From Pseudomonadota bacterium (GTDB lineage: Bacteria; Pseudomonadota; Gammaproteobacteria; UBA1113): 64,000 nt of DNA. Shown here in pieces: positions 31,723 through 63,354 of the stretch; the stretch's first letter is position 1; each line of letters opens with the position of its first letter. Below the pieces are notes generated by a model. That model saw only the letters and a list, made by a program, of their open reading frames with translations, searched no databases and was not told the origin of the DNA. The position numbers were made by a program, and so were the translations under genes. The stretch lies in NCBI GenBank assembly GCA_021778015.1, contig JAJYCX010000005.1, positions 1 to 64,000 of the forward strand. The letters are read 5' to 3'.

Positions 31723-31858
31723 GTCATCCTCGACGCAGTCGGGGATCCAGTTTCAAATCAAGTTTTTCCTGGATCCCCGACTGCGGCCTCGCGGCCTGGT
31801 CGAGGATGACAAAGCTTCGATTTAAATCTATAGTATTCATTAAAATCTCGCATCTTCA
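31723..31858. repeat. GTCATCC-type palindromic repeat with 50-base arm
   Basis: GTCATCCTCGAC (from 31723) and GTCGAGGATGAC-type sequence (ending 31810) are inverted ends enclosing internal GGGGATCCAG/CTGGATCCCC inverted repeats. An adjoining arm of about 48 bases (AAAGCTTCGATTTAAATC to GCATCTTCATT, 31811-31858) is shared with the copies at 48883 and 63223. It fills the parE-nudix gap and touches the NUDIX stop codon. No gene is seen in the gap. Confidence 0.8.
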
Positions 31859-32500
31859 TTAGCGCTGAGCTAATTCCTGATGGTGCATTTGTAACCATTG
31901 CAAAGCGATTAAAGTCATTGCATTGTTAACGCTGCCTGCAGCCACCGCTTGCATGCATTCCTCTAGGCTAAAGACGCAGACGCGTATGTCTTCGTGTTCA
32001 TCTTTTAAGCCATGAATGCCGCCCGCAAGACTGGCGTCAATTATAGCATAAAACAAATGAAATTTTTCAGCATTGCCACCTGGACTTGCATAATAAGAAA
32101 CCATAGGCTGTACCTTGCTGACTTCTAAGCCGGTTTCTTCGAATACTTCTTTTATAGCAACGGCTGCTGGTGCTTCGCCCGCAGGAATGCCTCCCGCGAC
32201 AATTTCGACTAGCCATGGGGTACTTGTATCTCTGAGGGCACCTGGGCGGAATTGTTCCACTAAAACCACTGCCTGTTGTTTAGGATCGTACAATAATACA
32301 CCAACAGCATCACCACGCACAAAGATTTCGCGTGTGATGGTTTCGCTCCAACCTCCGGCAAAGAGCCGATGACGTAAGCGATATTCTTTGAGACGAAAAA
32401 AGCCATGATAAACAACTTTTTCTTGTTCGATGATCACATCGTTGTGATTGAATTCAGGTTCAGATGATTTGTTACGCAAGAAGGGAGTCCTCATTAACAT
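31859..32500 (-). CDS. nudF: NUDIX hydrolase, ADP-ribose pyrophosphatase type
   Basis: A 213-residue NUDIX hydrolase resembling NudF, which cleaves ADP-ribose to AMP and ribose-5-phosphate. The box reads GGIPAGE...KEVFEETGLE (about 110-132); the expected Arg of the REUxEExGU core is Lys here, while the metal-binding glutamates are kept. QFRPGAL upstream is typical of ADP-ribose hydrolases. The ATG at 32500 overlaps the upstream transglutaminase stop in TGATG, so it is probably translated by reinitiation. Its stop codon lies at the edge of a repeat element. Confidence 0.85.
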   Translation of the reverse strand: MLMRTPFLRNKSSEPEFNHNDVIIEQEKVVYHGFFRLKEYRLRHRLFAGGWSETITREIFVRGDAVGVLLYDPKQQAVVLVEQFRPGALRDTSTPWLVEIVAGGIPAGEAPAAVAIKEVFEETGLEVSKVQPMVSYYASPGGNAEKFHLFYAIIDASLAGGIHGLKDEHEDIRVCVFSLEECMQAVAAGSVNNAMTLIALQWLQMHHQELAQR

Positions 32501-35500
32501 CAAAAGGGTCGTCGCAAATCCAAAGTATAAGGATATTCTTCATCTACAAAGCGTTGTGGACTGCCAACGTGCTCATGAGTAACTATATCACGGCTAAATA
32601 TTTTTTGAAAACGGGTCGCCGCATCCCGTTCGTTGATTGGCGGTTGTTCGTAAACTTTACCGCTGGGATCAGAGACATGATAACAGCATCCGCCCAAAAC
32701 ACGTTGTTGTAGACAATCGACTATTTCAAAGGTTAGCGTTTTTTGTGTGGGCAGATTTGGGTGTAAAGTGTTGATCAGTTCCCAAGCTTTAAAACGCACA
32801 CCCGCGATATAATGTTGAGCTTGTGTCGTTGCATGCAAGGGTAGAGGATAGCCATTGCATAAGACTTTATACCTATCTTCTAATTGACCAATGACTTCTA
32901 TTTGTAATCGCTCCGTAGCTGAATCTACAGGACGACTGGTTGCACCAGCCACGGCTTGATCCCCTAAAACTAACCAGGGTTCAGCCGCAAAACGTAGGTT
33001 TAATTGTAAGTCTTCAACCGTTATCTCGCCAATTAAAGGGAAACGACTTTCTAAAAAAGGTCTATACCATTGTGGCTCTAAAGCGATTTGATGCTGTTGT
33101 AAGTCGTAGAGAACGGTTTCAAAATCATGCCAAATATAATAGGGTAGCATAAACTTATCGTGCAAGGCTGTGCCCCAACGAATCAAACGCGCAGCATACG
33201 GTTGTTGCCAACAACGCAATATTATAGCGCGTAATAATAAATGTTGTAATAGATTCAACTTCGCTGTGGCGGGCATTTCAAAAGAACGTAATTCAACTAA
33301 GCCTAGGCGGCCATACATGTGATCAGGTGAATATAATTTATCTAAACAAATTTCTGCGCGATGGGTGTTACCTGTCACATCGACCATTACATTACGCAAT
33401 AGTCTGTCTACTAACCAATAATGACTCTCTAAGGCTTCTTTAGGTATGGCTTCAAAAGCAATTTCCAGTTCATGCAACATATCATGACGGCTTTCATCTA
33501 AGCGGGGCGCTTGACAAGTTGGCCCTATGAATAAACCTGAGAATAAATACGATAAGCTAGGATGATGTTGGAAATAAGTGATTATACTGCGGAGTAGGTC
33601 GGGTCTACGTAAAAACGGACTGTCTTTAGGTGTTCTTCCGCCTAATACGATATGATTACCACCACCAGCAGCAATTTTTCGCCCGTTCATCATATATTTT
33701 TCAGGTGTTAGCTCTAAAGAGGCTGCGTGTTCATAAACGCTGCTCATAACATTTGATAAGTCGTGCCAATTGCTCGTAGGATGCATATTGATTTCTATCA
33801 CGCCGGGATCGGGTGTAATAGAAAATTTTTCTAGACGTGGGTCGGTTGGGGGTTCGTATCCTTCTATAAACACGGGTAACCCTACACTTGCCGCTGCCTC
33901 TTCAATATGTGCTATCAACGCCAAATAATGTTCTATATAAGCCAGCGGTGGCATGAATACAGCTAAACGATTCTCTTTAATAGAAACGCCTAGAGCAGTA
34001 CATTCCCATGGTGCGGGCAAATGACTTTCAATAGACAAAGTATTTTTACTATTGTCTTTTAACGCTAGTCTAGAGGGTAATGGTTCTAATGGGCTTAATG
34101 GTGAACGTTGTGGCCATTCTACCGTATTAGGTTTCTGTTTAGTGAGTGTATCTAATGGCAAGCGATAGCCTATAGCGGTATCTCCATACGTTAGAAACAG
34201 TTTATGGCGATGAAACTTCCAGATGGGGGAATGCCATTGCTTTTGCGCAAAATCCCAATGCAGCGGTAATATCAAACCAGTAGGAGTGGATGCTTTATCG
34301 TTTACAGCGTGTATAAATTTTTGCGTCCATTCTGTATCGTCGTAATCAAGCTCATTATAAGGATTTATATGTTGTTCCCGGCGAATGATTTCTATAGGAT
34401 CTTCAAATGCCTCTATCTCACGGACGCTTAAATTTAATTCTTTGATCAATGCAGCCATAAACTGTTTAGCATGGTCCATTGTTAATGGATAAGATACGGT
34501 ATGTGCCAGCAAAGCGCTATTTTGCCAGACAGGGATATTATCTTTGCGCCAGAAACAATTTAAAGCCCAACGAGGATATTCTTCGCCTGGGTAATGTTTT
34601 CCTTGACCAAAATGCAGTAAACCACCTTCTGCAAATACATCTTTGAGTGCATATAGCAACTTTTCTGCGGTTTCTCTTTTCTCGATACCCATAGCACCTG
34701 TATGCCATTCTGTTGCCGTAGAACCTATTTTGGTAAAAGTAGGTTCACCTCCCGAAGTTAAACGTATATCTAAAGCCGCTATCTGTTCGTCTACGTTCGC
34801 CGCAACAGCACTTACTTTTTCCCAGTCAGCGTTATGATTTTCTACCGTCGCGGTGGTATTTGTCTCCAATGGCGTGACGGTCATTTCTACTGTAAATTCT
34901 GTTTCACAGGGGGTGCAGGTTCCTTCAATCGCCGCTGCAAGTGCAGGCTCTGGCGTACAGCATAAGGGTATATGATCTTCACTGGTCAATAAACCAGAAG
35001 TGGAATCCAATCCTATCCACCCCGCACCGGGTAAATAAGCTTCCACCCAAGCATGCAATGCGAGCGTATTTTTAGGGTGTTTTTCGGTAGCCAATTGTAT
35101 TAAGTAACCCGAAACAAAACGCGCCGCAATGTGATAATGACGTAGTGTTTCCATGAGCAAGACCGCCATATCACGACAAGAACCTTGTTTGTTAATTAAG
35201 GTCTCATCACTGGTTTGTATACCGGGTTCATGTCTTAACGTATAAACAATAGTGTCATGTACTTTTTGGTTCAAGCTTATAATAAAATCTAGTGTGCGTT
35301 GCGGGCTGGTGTTTATTTCACTTAACCAAGCAGAAAACAGAGGCGTTTGTATAGGAGGAGATAAATAGGGGATTAATTGCGACTGTAGTGCAGCGCTATA
35401 TTGAAATGGATAGTACAGGGCATAGTCATCTAAAAAGAAGTTAAACGGGTTAATAGGTTTAAAGTCTAATTGCAGCAACACGGATATCTCTAAACGCTGC

Positions 35501-35709
35501 ACTGGTTTAGGAAAAACTATATGGGCAATGTGGTTACCACCGGGGTCTTGTTGCCAATTGAGGAAATGAGGCGAAGGGTTAATCGTTAATGCATAGTTTA
35601 ATATCTCGCAGGGTGCATGAGCTGCTGGATGTAATCGTATCAAATGTGGCGACAAAATGACGGCTTGATTGTATTGGTAAAGGGTTTTATGAAATAGCGC
35701 TAGTTTCAT
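32500..35709 (-). CDS. Transglutaminase-like protein fused to DUF2126
   Basis: A 1069-residue protein. The N-terminal part has the bacterial transglutaminase N-domain (HKTLYQYNQAVILSPHLIRL) and a transglutaminase/protease core with the full triad: Cys178 in KQGSCRD, His219 in LHAWVEAY, Asp235 in GLDSTSG. After a linker rich in Thr and Glu, the C-terminal 750 residues are DUF2126, starting LTSGGEPTF at 317-325. No signal peptide is seen, so it is cytosolic. It is divergent from the ATP-grasp operon and coupled to the NUDIX gene. The family is predicted to hydrolyse or transfer peptide amide bonds; the substrate is unknown. Confidence 0.9.
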   Translation of the reverse strand: MKLALFHKTLYQYNQAVILSPHLIRLHPAAHAPCEILNYALTINPSPHFLNWQQDPGGNHIAHIVFPKPVQRLEISVLLQLDFKPINPFNFFLDDYALYYPFQYSAALQSQLIPYLSPPIQTPLFSAWLSEINTSPQRTLDFIISLNQKVHDTIVYTLRHEPGIQTSDETLINKQGSCRDMAVLLMETLRHYHIAARFVSGYLIQLATEKHPKNTLALHAWVEAYLPGAGWIGLDSTSGLLTSEDHIPLCCTPEPALAAAIEGTCTPCETEFTVEMTVTPLETNTTATVENHNADWEKVSAVAANVDEQIAALDIRLTSGGEPTFTKIGSTATEWHTGAMGIEKRETAEKLLYALKDVFAEGGLLHFGQGKHYPGEEYPRWALNCFWRKDNIPVWQNSALLAHTVSYPLTMDHAKQFMAALIKELNLSVREIEAFEDPIEIIRREQHINPYNELDYDDTEWTQKFIHAVNDKASTPTGLILPLHWDFAQKQWHSPIWKFHRHKLFLTYGDTAIGYRLPLDTLTKQKPNTVEWPQRSPLSPLEPLPSRLALKDNSKNTLSIESHLPAPWECTALGVSIKENRLAVFMPPLAYIEHYLALIAHIEEAAASVGLPVFIEGYEPPTDPRLEKFSITPDPGVIEINMHPTSNWHDLSNVMSSVYEHAASLELTPEKYMMNGRKIAAGGGNHIVLGGRTPKDSPFLRRPDLLRSIITYFQHHPSLSYLFSGLFIGPTCQAPRLDESRHDMLHELEIAFEAIPKEALESHYWLVDRLLRNVMVDVTGNTHRAEICLDKLYSPDHMYGRLGLVELRSFEMPATAKLNLLQHLLLRAIILRCWQQPYAARLIRWGTALHDKFMLPYYIWHDFETVLYDLQQHQIALEPQWYRPFLESRFPLIGEITVEDLQLNLRFAAEPWLVLGDQAVAGATSRPVDSATERLQIEVIGQLEDRYKVLCNGYPLPLHATTQAQHYIAGVRFKAWELINTLHPNLPTQKTLTFEIVDCLQQRVLGGCCYHVSDPSGKVYEQPPINERDAATRFQKIFSRDIVTHEHVGSPQRFVDEEYPYTLDLRRPF

Positions 35710-35950
35710 TTGTATAGAAAGAATCCTTGTTCAGCTAAGAGAGGGCCACCCCTCTAAACTTAGACTATTTTTAAAGAAAAACAAGGTAATTCAATGGAAT
35801 TGGACTTTACTGATTGTTTGTACTAGGCTGTTTCTAGGCATTTACAAAGTCGGGAATGGCAAGGATAGCTTTAGCCATACATTAGTGTATGTTCAAACGC
35901 ACATCTTCATTGATGATGGCTATAGACTCTGGTGAAATAAGGAATAGTAC
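35710..35950. promoter_or_regulatory. Divergent intergenic region of the transglutaminase/ATP-grasp cluster
   Basis: 241 bases between divergently transcribed genes, so it must hold both promoters. Nested inverted repeats are seen at 35872-35922: TAGCCAT pairs with ATGGCTA, and inside it CATACA pairs with TGTATG (35876-35891) around TTAG. This could be an RNA leader hairpin or an operator for the plus-strand operon. No convincing -35/-10 pair could be chosen. Confidence 0.5.
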
Positions 35951-37426
35951 GTGAATAATCCCTTAACTGGTTTATTTAAAGATTATCGACCCTTACCGGG
36001 ACGATATGATGAAATGTTTCTTGAAAACGGTTATCCGCAACTCGCATTTCGTCAGTTATTAGAACTATTAGATAAAAACACCTTAGAAGATTTTCAACAT
36101 TATCGCCATTTAGCCGACAATATTTTTCGCAATAATGGTACGACCTTCTTAGTCTATAAGCACGAAAAGGGTACCGAGGAGATTTTTCCTTTTGATTTAA
36201 TTCCACGCATCATTTGTGCGCAAGATTGGCAAAAACTAGAAAAAGGGTTGTTACAGCGCGTACATGCATTAGAGTTATTTTTACACGACATTTATGGTGA
36301 GCAAAGAATATTAAAAGATAATATTATTCCACGTGAATTAATAGAATCTTCAGCTGGTTATAATCCTAGAATGCGTCATATCACGCCACCGGGTGGCATT
36401 TACATCAATATTTCTGGGATCGATTTGCTTAAAACCAATGAAGGAGAATATTGTGTATTAGAAGATAATTTACGTACTCCGTCTGGCGTATCGTATGTGC
36501 TAGAAAATCGCTTAACCATGAAACGAGTCTTCCCCGCTATTTTTAAGAAAAGCCATATACGCACGATTAAAGAATATCCCTTACGATTTAAAGATGCACT
36601 GGCTTCGTTGTCTACGGTGGACAATCCCATAGTGGTTATATTAACGCCTGGTGTGAACAATTCAGCTTTCTTTGAACACAGTTATCTTGCTCGCAAAATG
36701 GGTTGTTATTTAGTACAAGGCAGCGATTTGTTTGTGCACCAAGAGAAGGTCTATGTAAAAACCACTGAAGGGGCAAAACGAGTCGATGTGATTTATAGAC
36801 GAGTAGACGATGAGTATATTGATCCTAGTTTTTCCAACAATAATAGCGTATTAGGCGTGCCGGATTTGGTAAAAGCCTATGTTGCAGGCAATGTTATTTT
36901 GGCCAATGGCTTAGGCAATGGTGTTGCCGATGATAAAGCCATTTATTCTTTTGTTCCCGAGATGATACGGTATTACCTTACCGAAGAGCCTCTCTTAGCA
37001 CAAGTGCCTACGTACTTAGGCTATAGAGAAAAAGATAAAAATATTATTTTACAGAATTTAGATAAATTTGTGGTAAAAATGGTAGATGGTTCGGGCGGTT
37101 ATGGTATGTTGTTTGGCCCACAAGCTACACAAAAGGAAAGAACAGAATTTGCTGAGAAAATTAAAGCCAATCCACGCCATTATATTGCGCAAGAAGTCGT
37201 TGAGTTATCGACATGCCCTACTTGGGATTTGCAAAAGTTAGCGCCCAAACGCGTTGATTTTAGACCCTATATTGTGAGTGGGCAATATCGTTGGGTACTA
37301 CCCGGAGGCTTAACGCGAGTAGCTTTAGAGGAAAATTCATATATTGTAAACTCTAGCCAAGGAGGGGGTTCTAAAGATACGTGGGTGTTGAATGAAGAGG
37401 ATGAGTACGCAAAGGAGGGCATATGA
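35951..37426 (+). CDS. Circularly permuted ATP-grasp protein (DUF404/DUF407)
   Basis: A 491-residue ligase-type protein. Conserved landmarks are EDNLRTPSGVSYV (171-183), RRVDDEYIDP (283-292) and the glycine-rich ATP loop GSGGYGM (380-386). The family is predicted from genomics to join amino acids or peptides through carboxyl-phosphate intermediates. GTG is the start, with AAGGA 7 bases upstream. The stop overlaps the alpha-E gene as ATGA, so the three-gene operon is tightly coupled. No experiment in this organism is known to me. Confidence 0.9.
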   Translation: MNNPLTGLFKDYRPLPGRYDEMFLENGYPQLAFRQLLELLDKNTLEDFQHYRHLADNIFRNNGTTFLVYKHEKGTEEIFPFDLIPRIICAQDWQKLEKGLLQRVHALELFLHDIYGEQRILKDNIIPRELIESSAGYNPRMRHITPPGGIYINISGIDLLKTNEGEYCVLEDNLRTPSGVSYVLENRLTMKRVFPAIFKKSHIRTIKEYPLRFKDALASLSTVDNPIVVILTPGVNNSAFFEHSYLARKMGCYLVQGSDLFVHQEKVYVKTTEGAKRVDVIYRRVDDEYIDPSFSNNNSVLGVPDLVKAYVAGNVILANGLGNGVADDKAIYSFVPEMIRYYLTEEPLLAQVPTYLGYREKDKNIILQNLDKFVVKMVDGSGGYGMLFGPQATQKERTEFAEKIKANPRHYIAQEVVELSTCPTWDLQKLAPKRVDFRPYIVSGQYRWVLPGGLTRVALEENSYIVNSSQGGGSKDTWVLNEEDEYAKEGI

Positions 37427-38427
37427 TTTCAAGAGTAGCAGGCATTTGTTTTTGGATGAGCCGTTATTTAGAACGAGTTGAAAATACCATTCGGGTATTA
37501 ACGGCAAACTATACCTATATGCTAGATGGCGAACCGGTGATGAAAGATGCTTGGTGGTCTGTGGTTTGCGTCATGGGTGTTGAAAAAGAATTTGAAGCCC
37601 TTTATTCACAGCAAGATAAAAATCAAGAAGAATTGATTCAGAAATTTTTAGTGTGGGATGATAATAATCCAGTATCCATTAAAAATTCTTTGCACATAGC
37701 CCGAGAAAATGCAAAGATCATTCGAGATTCCATCAACAATGAATTGTGGGATACTATCAATCGTTTATGGCTGTGGTTTATTTCGAGTGAAGCCGAGGTT
37801 TTATACAGCCGCAATAAGTATTTGTTTTGTGTCACCATTCAAGAAAAGTGTCAGTCTTATCAAGGTGTATTGCATAACAGCATTCCTAGAACCAGCCCGT
37901 ATGAATTTATGCGCTTAGGCTTTTTGTTAGAACGGGCGAGTCAAACCACAAGAATATTAGACATCAATTATCATTGTGTCAGCGATAAATCAGCCGTTGT
38001 GGATGAGACAGCACAAGAAATTGCGCATTGGTTGAATCTACTAGAATCTTGCGGTGCGCATGAAATTTTCATGATGTATGATCACGCCGAACTAATAGGC
38101 AGCGTTATTGCCAAGTTTTTGACCTTAAATCAAACTTTCCCTAGGTCTATATTATTTTGCCTTGAAAGAGCGCATGAAAGCTTGTTGCATATACAGGCAA
38201 GCGCGCATTCACAGATCGGCAATAATACACGTTATAAACTAGAGGAAGTGATCGCTGCGCTAAAGCTAAAACCTATAGATAAAATTTTAAAAAATGAATT
38301 ACACAGCTTATTAAATGAGATTTTGGAAAATACCGATGAGATTTGCGAAACGCTGGCAGCAGACTTTTTTGAACCACAAAGAACTATAGACGCTATCGAA
38401 GAAACGATGGGTGGAGGACAGCAATGA
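37423..38427 (+). CDS. Alpha-E domain protein (DUF403)
   Basis: A 334-residue, almost entirely alpha-helical protein. It has MISRVAGICFWMSRYLERVENT at the N-terminus, which is the classic alpha-E start (WMSRYLERAENT), and RASQTTRILDINY near 178. The family always travels with the ATP-grasp gene and may be a scaffold or substrate-binding partner. Strong GGAGG lies upstream inside the previous gene. It overlaps its neighbours by 4 bases at both ends. Confidence 0.92.
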   Translation: MISRVAGICFWMSRYLERVENTIRVLTANYTYMLDGEPVMKDAWWSVVCVMGVEKEFEALYSQQDKNQEELIQKFLVWDDNNPVSIKNSLHIARENAKIIRDSINNELWDTINRLWLWFISSEAEVLYSRNKYLFCVTIQEKCQSYQGVLHNSIPRTSPYEFMRLGFLLERASQTTRILDINYHCVSDKSAVVDETAQEIAHWLNLLESCGAHEIFMMYDHAELIGSVIAKFLTLNQTFPRSILFCLERAHESLLHIQASAHSQIGNNTRYKLEEVIAALKLKPIDKILKNELHSLLNEILENTDEICETLAADFFEPQRTIDAIEETMGGGQQ

Positions 38428-40163
38428 CACACATCTTAGGGTTTTCATTTGATTGTGCGGTATCTCCGTCGATTAGAATTAAGCCCTACAAACTGGATAG
38501 GTCGCAAAAAGAATATCTCTATGGTTGGGGTTATGGCTGGTATCCGGGCAATGAAGATGCTGCTACTATCATCAAAGATGCCACCGCTGCACGTGAAGCG
38601 GGAATCATTAAAGCGATGGCCGAATGGCAACGTTTTAATTCTACGCTTTTTATTTGCCACATACGAGGTGCGGCCAAGAACATAGTACAAAAAAACATTC
38701 AACCTTTTAGCCGCAGTTATGCGGGTTCCGACTGGATTATGTTGCATAATGGAAATTTGGAAAATTATAGAGATGCTTTTTATCTGGGCAATGATCCGTT
38801 ATTTGAGCCCGTAGGGACTACTGATTCGGAACACGTATTTTGTTGGTTGATGCAGAAGATTTACCACGAAAAAATAAGAAATTTAGGCGATCTAGATAAG
38901 CAAAAATTACATGATTGGTTTTTAGAATTCAATCAATATGGCACGGCTAATTTTATGTTAAGTGATGGTAAATATTTAGTTGTTTATCAAGACAAAGATG
39001 GTTTTAATCCCATCTATTGGTGCAGGCGTGTGCCACCGTATCAACAAAATGTATTGGAATCGTCCGATGTGGTCATCGACTTAAATGGCGATTCGGAGCA
39101 AGAAGTGACTATGGTAGTTTTTGCCAATGAGGCTTTAACAGACGATAAATGGACTCAAATGGCGCCTGGGGAAATGTTGATAGTACGTCGCGGTTGGGTA
39201 ACGTGGGACAGTGAAGCGCAAGGTCTAGCACAAGAAACTATTTTAACGGGTAAAACGTATGCAAGAAAAATCATTGCACAGCCTAAGAAGAAACCAAAGC
39301 CACAGACTTACCGCATCCTGCATGAAACCATCTATCGTTATGATAATCCAGTGACAGAAAGCAGACATGTATTTCGTATGAAACCTAGAGATTATCTTTA
39401 TCAAAGACTGGTTTCGCATAAAATATCCGTTAAACCGCCAGTGGTTTTATCCGAAAATGAAGATGTATTTGGTAATATCGTTTATCATACTAATATTAAG
39501 AAGCCATATACTGTTTTGGAGATACGCACTGAATCGGTAGTGAAAGTGTACCCCCATCTTTATACGTCTATACCCGATGAGCTGAATCAAAATATTCCTT
39601 TAATTTGGATGCCGTGGCAGCGGCAAATGATGACGCCATATCTATTACCTATGGAATTGCCTGAAAGCAATCTGCGGTCGTTGTCGGATTATGCCATGAG
39701 CTTTGTTAAACGATCAGATTATAATTTATTATCGGTGTTACACGACATCAATCAAGCCATTTATCATGATTATACGTATATTCCCGGTGTGACCAATCTT
39801 GAAACTACACCTTATGATGTATTTCAAAAACGTCGTGGGGTTTGTCAAGATTTCGCTAATCTTTTTATTTGTTTGGCACAATTACTCAATATTCCAGCAC
39901 GATATCGAACGGGGTATATTTATACCGGCGCAAATTATGAAAATACCGTACAATCCGATGCCTCACATGCTTGGGCAGAAGTGTTTTTACCTTATATGGG
40001 CTGGTTAGGGTACGATCCCACCAATGGTATTTTAGCCACCACCGATCACATACAAGTGGCTTGTGGTCGTAACTACCGCGATGCAACACCTACAGCGGGT
40101 ACGATTTACGAAGGCGGCGGTAAAGAAGAGATGTCTTTAATAGTGAAAGTAGAGCGGATCTGA
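38424..40163 (+). CDS. Class II amidotransferase fused to transglutaminase-like protease
   Basis: A 579-residue fusion. Residues 1-270 resemble YafJ-like class II (Ntn) glutamine amidotransferases: HIRGAA (79-84), LHNGNL (107-112) and GTTDSEHVF (131-139). The N-terminal residue after Met is Thr2, not the catalytic Cys2. Residues 295-579 are a transglutaminase-like domain with the triad Cys474 (GVCQDF), His515 (SHAWAEV) and Asp531 (GYDPTNG). In related clusters these two are, as I recall, usually separate genes. It closes the ATP-grasp/alpha-E operon. Predicted role is cutting or transferring the peptide made by the ATP-grasp enzyme; this is inference. Confidence 0.9.
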   Translation: MTHILGFSFDCAVSPSIRIKPYKLDRSQKEYLYGWGYGWYPGNEDAATIIKDATAAREAGIIKAMAEWQRFNSTLFICHIRGAAKNIVQKNIQPFSRSYAGSDWIMLHNGNLENYRDAFYLGNDPLFEPVGTTDSEHVFCWLMQKIYHEKIRNLGDLDKQKLHDWFLEFNQYGTANFMLSDGKYLVVYQDKDGFNPIYWCRRVPPYQQNVLESSDVVIDLNGDSEQEVTMVVFANEALTDDKWTQMAPGEMLIVRRGWVTWDSEAQGLAQETILTGKTYARKIIAQPKKKPKPQTYRILHETIYRYDNPVTESRHVFRMKPRDYLYQRLVSHKISVKPPVVLSENEDVFGNIVYHTNIKKPYTVLEIRTESVVKVYPHLYTSIPDELNQNIPLIWMPWQRQMMTPYLLPMELPESNLRSLSDYAMSFVKRSDYNLLSVLHDINQAIYHDYTYIPGVTNLETTPYDVFQKRRGVCQDFANLFICLAQLLNIPARYRTGYIYTGANYENTVQSDASHAWAEVFLPYMGWLGYDPTNGILATTDHIQVACGRNYRDATPTAGTIYEGGGKEEMSLIVKVERI

Positions 40164-40286: not shown

Positions 40287-42029
40287 ATGAAACAGAATTC
40301 TAATGACAGGCCTTTAGTCGATAGAGAAGAGGAACAAAATCTCCCGTCAAATAGCCCCCCCGTACCTCTTCCTAGAGATACTTCAGACTGTGAGCTCGAC
40401 ATTTCTAGCGACAATAGCCCGGTATTGATTGCAAGAAAAAAATTGGAACCAGAAGATAACTCCCACGAAAAACTTTTTACTTTAGAGCCCCAACCTTCAG
40501 AAATAGAACAAGAGAGCGATGCGCAACGCAGCATAAAGGGGATGAATCGCTATATAGATAAGCAATATGAAAACCACATTGCGGGAAAGGAAAAAATAAT
40601 ACCTTGGTTAATGACTATTATTAACTCTAAAATTACCGATAAACGTGCAGGCTTGAAGCCTCTTTCGTCGGAATTACTTTATTCCGCTTACCGTGGCGAG
40701 AAACTTCTGGATGCCACAGTAGACAGCTGCGACGCAGTGGACCCAAAATATCCGCCCTTACTGATAAAGACACTAGATGTGGTAATGTGGATTGAGAAAA
40801 GGGATGGAGTTGTTTTTGGGAAGGATAATGACATTGATCTTAGAAAGAAAAAGCCGGTATGTATTTTGTTCCTTGCCGATGAAGGGGAGGACTCAAATCT
40901 CCGAAGCAATGCTCAAACTCTAAAAGAAAATAGAATCCCCTTCATTTTAGTGGGGAGTATTGAACAAGAGGGAATGGCTTTTGCCAAAGAACTGGGCGCT
41001 GTGTTATTTATAGAAGGGGATCATCAATATGATGATTCTGATAATTTAGGGCGGCTCCTAAGACAAGTGGCTATGGTTGCTAGCCTGAACGAAAAGGAGC
41101 AAGAACTTTATCAGCGAACTTATTGGGCAGAGCTAGAATACCAGAATTTTATTAAACTAGAGAACGATGCAGCAAAGAATCTATTAAGCAAATTAAACAA
41201 CTATATTCAAGACTATGACAATAATCCTGCCGAAAAGTTTAGAGACGTAGTAGTATCCTCAACTTTATTTCAGCGTATCGTGCCCCCCGCTAAAAATACA
41301 GAGCATAAGACAGAGGATAATAAGAAAAAAGCTGCCCAGAAATTAATAGATAAGTTGAAATTTGATATACAGCACAGCGCATATTTAGGCGACCTTCAGG
41401 ACGAATCAAATTTTACCCTTGCAGAGATTGACGCGCTTTGGGAAGGGACTCTGGGTCGAATTGTCAGAGAGAATGCTTCTGTGTATGACAGGCTAGCGGT
41501 AATACGGGATAAGCTAAAATATGAGCAAAACTACCCAAATGCCGCCGAAAGAAATTATCAGTTTTTTCTTTGGAAGACAGGTTCTAGGACTAAATCTGAC
41601 TTATTATATGACTTAGAGAAGTGTATTAATTCTTGTAAGGGCAATTCTACTCAACAAAATAAAAATCTACTTGTATCCTCATTTCTATTTCGGCCTGTCA
41701 CTACGCCTGTAGCGGATCAAACAGAAGAAGATATAAACAAAAGTGCTGCCGAGAAGTTAGTCAGGATGTTAAAATTAGATTGGGAGAATGCTGCACAATT
41801 AGAAGCACCAAGGAAGTTCTTAGGCGCTGAGAAACAGCAGTTTACTATCCAGGAAATGGAGGCACTTTGTAATAGCAATACGAGGTTGGGGGAAATTGTT
41901 GCGCGCCATGAGGAGCTGCACGAACTGTTCGTGGATATGAGGCATAAAAAATCTAATCAGTTGCAGCAAACCCAATCGGCACAGCCACCAAAAGACAGTG
42001 GATTGTTTGGTAGTTTTTCTCGGAAGTAG
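40287..42029 (+). CDS. Orphan 580-residue protein with internal duplication, effector-like
   Basis: No family recognised. The N-terminus (1-85) is acidic, disordered and Pro-rich, with PVPLPR at 25-30, a PxxxPR pattern like some SH3 ligands. Around 185-265, RIPFILVGSIEQEGMAFAKE (216-235) and what follows resemble the second half of a Ras-like GTPase, with NKxD and SAK replaced. Residues 284-411 and 423-554 are a diverged tandem repeat (VVSSTLFQR / LVSSFLFRP, KKAAQKLIDKLKFD / KSAAEKLVRMLKLD, IVRENASVYDRL / IVARHEELHELF). No signal peptide or membrane segment. GAGGAGG precedes the ATG, and TATAAT is at 40251. A Dot/Icm-type effector is a reasonable guess, not shown. Confidence 0.6.
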   Translation: MKQNSNDRPLVDREEEQNLPSNSPPVPLPRDTSDCELDISSDNSPVLIARKKLEPEDNSHEKLFTLEPQPSEIEQESDAQRSIKGMNRYIDKQYENHIAGKEKIIPWLMTIINSKITDKRAGLKPLSSELLYSAYRGEKLLDATVDSCDAVDPKYPPLLIKTLDVVMWIEKRDGVVFGKDNDIDLRKKKPVCILFLADEGEDSNLRSNAQTLKENRIPFILVGSIEQEGMAFAKELGAVLFIEGDHQYDDSDNLGRLLRQVAMVASLNEKEQELYQRTYWAELEYQNFIKLENDAAKNLLSKLNNYIQDYDNNPAEKFRDVVVSSTLFQRIVPPAKNTEHKTEDNKKKAAQKLIDKLKFDIQHSAYLGDLQDESNFTLAEIDALWEGTLGRIVRENASVYDRLAVIRDKLKYEQNYPNAAERNYQFFLWKTGSRTKSDLLYDLEKCINSCKGNSTQQNKNLLVSSFLFRPVTTPVADQTEEDINKSAAEKLVRMLKLDWENAAQLEAPRKFLGAEKQQFTIQEMEALCNSNTRLGEIVARHEELHELFVDMRHKKSNQLQQTQSAQPPKDSGLFGSFSRK

Positions 42030-63222: not shown

Positions 63223-63354
63223 AATGAAGATGTGAGACTTTGATGAATACTATAGATTTGAACAGAAGCTTTGTCATCCCCGACCGAAGGTCGGGGATCC
63301 AGGATCGTATTTGGCTTTTTCTGGATCCCCGACTGCGGCCTGATCGAGGATGAC
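63223..63354. repeat. Full GTCATCC...GGATGAC repeat with conserved arm
   Basis: The arm AATGAAGATGTGAGAC... (63223-63272) leads into GTCATCCCCGACCG and ends GAGGATGAC at 63354, with GGGGATCCAG/CTGGATCCCC inside. It is in the opposite orientation to the copies at 31723 and 48883. Confidence 0.82.

What the first reader, a model, noticed from the sequence alone, without database searches (positions are those of the whole stretch)
32500..40163. Complete divergent cluster of transglutaminase-DUF2126, ATP-grasp, alpha-E and amidotransferase: a predicted peptide-tagging system
Seen: a 1069-residue transglutaminase-DUF2126 protein, divergent from an operon of a circularly permuted ATP-grasp enzyme, an alpha-E protein and an amidotransferase-transglutaminase fusion, all with 4-base overlaps within the operon. 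Known: Iyer, Aravind and colleagues predicted that ATP-grasp plus alpha-E clusters make unknown peptides or peptide tags that the transglutaminase-like and Ntn enzymes cut or transfer. Inference: this is a self-contained synthesis and removal pathway in this genome. The NUDIX gene is translationally joined to it and may be part of it.
Basis: partly seen in the sequence, partly recalled or inferred. Interest (0 to 1): 0.78.

Follow-up and report, generated by a model that had tools for sequence, protein, structure and literature searches.

The report
Peptide-tagging cluster with a cysteine-less amidotransferase
An intact four-gene cluster, whose genes also sit close together in bacteria of several phyla, is predicted to build and cut an unknown small peptide; its so-called amidotransferase lacks the cysteine such enzymes need and is likely misnamed, and the neighbouring NUDIX gene is likely an unrelated housekeeping gene.

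The parts
32500..35709 (-). Transglutaminase-like domain fused to DUF2126 (predicted glutamine-synthetase-like amidoligase), 1069 aa; transglutaminase triad C178-H219-D235 invariant in 19 of 19 aligned proteins
   Evidence: AlphaFold model 59; folds 66, 67
35710..35950 (.). Divergent intergenic region, 241 bp, between the two transcription units; no promoter claimed (scan at background)
35951..37426 (+). Circularly permuted type 2 ATP-grasp ligase (predicted), 491 aa, GTG start; relative of solved chain 3n6x
37423..38427 (+). Alpha-E protein, 334 aa; 4-base overlap with the ATP-grasp gene
38424..40163 (+). GATase_4-like domain (Thr2 where the Cys nucleophile is expected) fused to a transglutaminase-like domain with C474-H515-D531; 579 aa; 4-base overlap with alpha-E
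   Evidence: AlphaFold model 51; folds 56
31859..32503 (-). NOT part of the system: nudF (ADP-ribose diphosphatase family), neighbour of parE-parC that overlaps the DUF2126 stop codon
40287..42029 (+). Flanking gene of unknown family, 580 aa; its relative is the gene next to nudF in genus mate G004, so it marks the right edge of the cluster

Best explanation
This is an intact four-gene cluster that is predicted to build a small peptide or peptide tag with two ATP-dependent ligases (a circularly permuted ATP-grasp enzyme and a predicted glutamine-synthetase-like DUF2126 enzyme) and likely to transfer or cut it with two transglutaminase-like domains, one of them fused to an amidotransferase-like domain that lacks the catalytic cysteine and so would not release ammonia from glutamine. 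Proposed steps: each ligase activates a carboxylate as an acyl phosphate and joins it to an amine (inferred from fold); a gamma-glutamyl-type bond is the most likely product because one ligase has the glutamine synthetase fold and the amidotransferase-like pocket keeps glutamine-binding residues (inferred). Alpha-E is a steady partner of unknown role (co-occurrence shown, role not). The transglutaminase-like Cys-His-Asp sites transfer or hydrolyse the new amide bond (triads shown, reaction inferred). The amidotransferase-like domain would serve as a recognition module that presents the glutamyl end to the fused transglutaminase site (inferred). NudF is not part of it.
Against: No substrate or product is known, here or in the passages read. 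The DUF2126 model is moderate (mean pLDDT 76.8, pTM 0.65), its glutamine synthetase match is modest, and Foldseek alone ranks the first relative of that fold 36th at E 0.046. In the window all glutamine-site residues except Cys remain (R81, N109, G110, D134; Thr at 2), so a Thr-based activity is not excluded. 3 of 31 fusion loci show none of the partners within the DNA held, and 16 of 31 lack at least one (many contigs end early). In G301 the operon ATP-grasp/alpha-E/fusion occurs and DUF2126 was not found in that genome, so DUF2126 is not indispensable. The Yersinia operon proteins showed no specific interaction with Anbu, and Anbu showed no peptidase activity.
Confidence: 0.55

Rival explanations
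1. The amidotransferase-like domain is an active N-terminal Thr/Ser hydrolase in the window's own clade, cutting glutamyl amide bonds in the manner of Ntn-hydrolases such as EgtC.
Against: Among 34 fusions the residue is Pro in 14, Gly in 4, Leu in 1 and Arg in 1; of the 13 with Ser only 1 has Met directly before it in the frame (a TTG or CTG start cannot be excluded in two more); Arg81 is replaced in 13 and Asn109 in 20; only 5 keep both. An N-terminal nucleophile is not a family trait.
Confidence: 0.25
2. The fusion is a true glutamine amidotransferase that feeds ammonia to the ligases.
For: Fold, Pfam name and database names.
Against: No Cys at position 2 in 34 of 34 fusions or in any of the 115 of 120 homologues that reach it; 15 of 15 stand-alone relatives compared have it.
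Confidence: 0.05
3. The NUDIX gene is a working part of the cluster.
For: It overlaps the DUF2126 stop codon, so the two genes may be translated together.
Against: nudF by NCBIfam (ADP-ribose diphosphatase model 231 bits, below its cut-off of 248; YffH/AdpP subfamily 173 bits, over its cut-off of 80); beside parE in 6 of 6 family genomes where found, none with alpha-E; no nudF relative at E 1e-6 in 31 fusion loci (other NUDIX families not tested).
Confidence: 0.04
4. The cluster is a recent private acquisition of this genome.
For: 10 of 10 other family genomes lack alpha-E; only 3 of 369 class genomes list a full-length fusion.
Against: Genus mate G004 keeps a decayed piece of the fusion gene's 3' end at the same place (alignment score 94; maximum 37 in 1000 letter shuffles and 36 in 1988 other window fragments), so the cluster likely predates that split.
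Confidence: 0.15

Closest known systems
Anbu operon (ATP-grasp, alpha-E, transglutaminase-like protein, Anbu)
   Same: Same ATP-grasp, alpha-E and transglutaminase families in one operon (PMC6376114 and PMC5666114, passages)
   Different: No Anbu found: the only PF00227 match in the own assembly (84% complete) is HslV beside HslU. A GATase-like domain fused to the transglutaminase stands in that place, and a DUF2126 protein is added
GATase_4 class II glutamine amidotransferases (1te5) and EgtC
   Different: No N-terminal Cys; fused to a transglutaminase domain
Beta-lactam synthetase (1mc1)
   Different: Other partner domain; loss of Cys there is from recall, not from a call
RimK/RimB and RloABC
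   Same: ATP-grasp ligase in one locus with an aspartic peptidase; in Rlo also a transglutaminase-like protein (PMC12239564, passages)
   Different: Aspartic peptidases, and an inactive membrane-bound transglutaminase in Rlo; alpha-E and DUF are not found in that text (0 occurrences), circular permutation is not mentioned in the passages seen

Membership tests
ATP-grasp/alpha-E/transglutaminase peptide systems (Iyer et al. 2009, recalled; cited) | Circularly permuted ATP-grasp gene next to alpha-E | tested here: met
ATP-grasp/alpha-E/transglutaminase peptide systems (Iyer et al. 2009, recalled; cited) | Transglutaminase-like protein with Cys-His-Asp in the same cluster | tested here: met
ATP-grasp/alpha-E/transglutaminase peptide systems (Iyer et al. 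2009, recalled; cited) | Makes or attaches a peptide | not testable with these tools
   no substrate known
Anbu operon type | Anbu (proteasome-like) gene in the operon | tested here: not met
   one PF00227 match in an assembly 84% complete, on another contig; it is HslV next to HslU
Class II glutamine amidotransferase | N-terminal catalytic cysteine | tested here: not met
   Thr2
Class II glutamine amidotransferase | Class II amidotransferase fold | tested here: met
Class II glutamine amidotransferase | Glutamine-site Arg, Asn-Gly and Asp (roles recalled) | tested here: met
   R81, N109-G110, D134 aligned with 15 stand-alone proteins; met in the window protein, but both Arg and Asn in only 5 of 34 fusions
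Glutamine-synthetase-like amidoligase | Glutamine synthetase fold of the DUF2126 part | tested here: met
Glutamine-synthetase-like amidoligase | ATP-dependent ligase activity | not testable with these tools
   needs purified protein
Known anti-phage defence system | Match to a PADLOC model | tested here: not met
   0 families for 4 of 4 proteins at E 0.001

The most novel reading that the evidence does not exclude
The fusion is a new kind of peptide-processing enzyme: an amidotransferase fold whose cysteine was traded for Thr/Ser or lost altogether, re-used as a glutamyl-recognition or Thr-hydrolase module wired to a transglutaminase site, replacing Anbu in a two-ligase peptide-tagging system spread over at least seven phyla.
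Probability: 0.3. Interest if true: 0.68.

Novelty: new member of a known kind. Interest (0 to 1): 0.42.

Why it matters
These ATP-grasp/alpha-E systems are widespread (106 of 369 sampled genomes of this class carry alpha-E), yet the passages seen here name no product. The result removes one misleading clue (a glutamine-fed amidotransferase), adds a second likely ligase to the model, takes NUDIX out of the list of parts, and names a small set of residues and genes (Thr2, C474, the ATP-grasp and DUF2126 genes) with which the peptide hypothesis can be tested directly.

Tried and rejected
NUDIX as a part: rejected. Active amidotransferase: rejected for lack of Cys. A conserved N-terminal Ser/Thr nucleophile for the whole family: looked strong on the 120 nearest homologues and failed on the more distant loci. 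Recent private acquisition: weakened by the G004 remnant; in the nudF-side gaps of the other five genomes (L105-L109) no match to the four proteins was better than E 0.08, and L106 ends at its contig border. Defence system: no PADLOC match. Promoters and terminators: at shuffle background, nothing claimed. Plasmids: 0 of 319 records with a match cover 80% of the fusion. GC content of the four genes (0.38-0.42) against 0.41 for the window says nothing. Literature: searches listed no paper that holds the word DUF2126 and none that I recognised, from titles and abstracts, as treating a Cys-less amidotransferase-transglutaminase fusion; the key paper, Iyer et al. 2009, is not held and is used from recall and from citing passages only, so whether it already noted this fusion is unknown. 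The papers were seen as passages only.

The partner genes were sought by tblastn at E 1e-6 with the window's proteins, so distant relatives can be missed. One search listed 120 of 2283 hits. The 15 stand-alone GATase_4 proteins were picked from the listing, not drawn at random. One search does not print all weaker matches. The Fisher test ignores kinship between genomes. The shuffles keep single letters only.

Full report
Observation. Pfam matches all four: transglutaminase-DUF2126 at 32500-35709 (-), and on the other strand circularly permuted ATP-grasp 35951-37426, alpha-E 37423-38427, GATase_4-transglutaminase 38424-40163. Both operon junctions overlap by four bases. NCBIfam gives no match at E 0.001 for the DUF2126, ATP-grasp and alpha-E proteins. 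Alpha-E and Bact_transglu_N have no match elsewhere in this assembly of 2.0 Mb, 84% complete.

Host. Among the 120 ParE relatives listed, the nearest with a name are a 'Gammaproteobacteria bacterium' MAG at 92% and 'Legionellales bacterium' MAGs at 71-73%. It is very likely a gammaproteobacterium; its genus was not determined.

NUDIX. The gene at 31859-32503 scores 231 bits with the NCBIfam ADP-ribose diphosphatase model (cut-off 248) and 173 bits with the YffH/AdpP subfamily (cut-off 80). In the family of the host it was found in 6 of 10 other genomes (5 of 5 genus mates and G009) and lies beside parE in 6 of 6; none of the 10 has alpha-E. In 31 loci elsewhere with a full-length fusion, no nudF relative is found at tblastn E 1e-6; other NUDIX families were not looked for. 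Its overlap with the DUF2126 stop codon is real but local. That nudF and parE are also neighbours in E. coli is recalled.

Site and history. In genus mate G004 the flanking DNA is collinear at 85-91%: nudF, then the 580-aa gene, pcm and tolC, without the cluster. The gap still holds about 115 bp that align with the last 114 bases of the fusion gene, with gaps that break the frame. The score is 94 against a maximum of 37 in 1000 letter shuffles and 36 in 1988 other fragments of the window. So the cluster, or at least this gene, likely stood there before G004 and this genome parted, and G004 lost it. In the class sample only G000, G059 and G301 list a full-length fusion (3 of 369; weaker matches are not all printed), the latter two in one genus with the order ATP-grasp, alpha-E, fusion.

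Co-occurrence. DUF2126 occurs in 65 and alpha-E in 106 of 369 class genomes; all 65 are among the 106 (Fisher p 2e-44, kinship not corrected). Of 31 loci with a full-length fusion, from Myxococcota, Pseudomonadota (alpha), Nitrospinota, Acidobacteriota, Chlamydiota, Verrucomicrobiota and Cyanobacteriota where a phylum was assigned, 15 have ATP-grasp, alpha-E and DUF2126, 7 DUF2126 only, 5 ATP-grasp and alpha-E, 1 alpha-E only, 3 none; many contigs end early. A DUF2126 gene divergent from the operon recurs (for example L027, L028, L029, L031, L032, L037, L052), though there the fusion is the first gene of the operon and in the window the last. In the tree the window protein groups with unnamed metagenome proteins P0002-P0008, not within any named phylum.

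Known work. Passages of PMC6376114 and PMC5666114 describe the Anbu operon with ATP-grasp, alpha-E and transglutaminase; the first reports that the ATP-grasp protein releases phosphate from ATP, that Anbu showed no peptidase activity, and that the tagging hypotheses were unconfirmed to its authors' knowledge. PMC3597751 (passages) cites the same families as a peptide synthesis/modification system. PMC12239564 (passages) gives a different operon with ATP-grasp and an inactive transglutaminase, with stress phenotypes. Iyer et al. 2009 could not be read. Here Anbu was not found: the only PF00227 match in the assembly is HslV next to HslU.

Verdict. A real, complete member of a known kind of system that is still uncharacterised as far as the passages seen tell.

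Noticed in passing
31785-31865 and 63223-63285: Dispersed repeat: the stretch between parE and nudF gives 70 matches in the own genome; its first 28 bases often reappear on the opposite strand some 50-110 bases from a longer match, as in a small mobile element. A similar stretch occurs in genus mate G004. RNA fold at shuffle level.
   Followed up: partly
L104:9600-9845 (G004): Decayed 3' end of the fusion gene left at the place of the missing cluster
   Followed up: yes
L042, L045, L046, L051, L055: A further DUF2126-like stretch lies beside the TG-DUF2126 gene in five Myxococcota or Acidobacteriota clusters
   Followed up: no
G059 and G301 (L140, L141, L142): Another small-genome genus of the class carries ATP-grasp/alpha-E/fusion; G059 has its DUF2126 gene on another contig, and G301 gave no DUF2126 match
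   Followed up: partly
L053, L058: ATP-grasp and alpha-E followed by a transglutaminase that aligns with the query only from about residue 296 or 304; Anbu not checked there
   Followed up: no
40287-42029: 580-aa protein with no Pfam or NCBIfam match, 64% identical in G004
   Followed up: no
P0012, P0019, P0033, P0040 and others (database proteins, not the window): Some fusions carry up to 61 residues before the Ser/Thr, often ending in an EHxL-like stretch (read by eye); a wrong start or a propeptide could both explain it
   Followed up: partly
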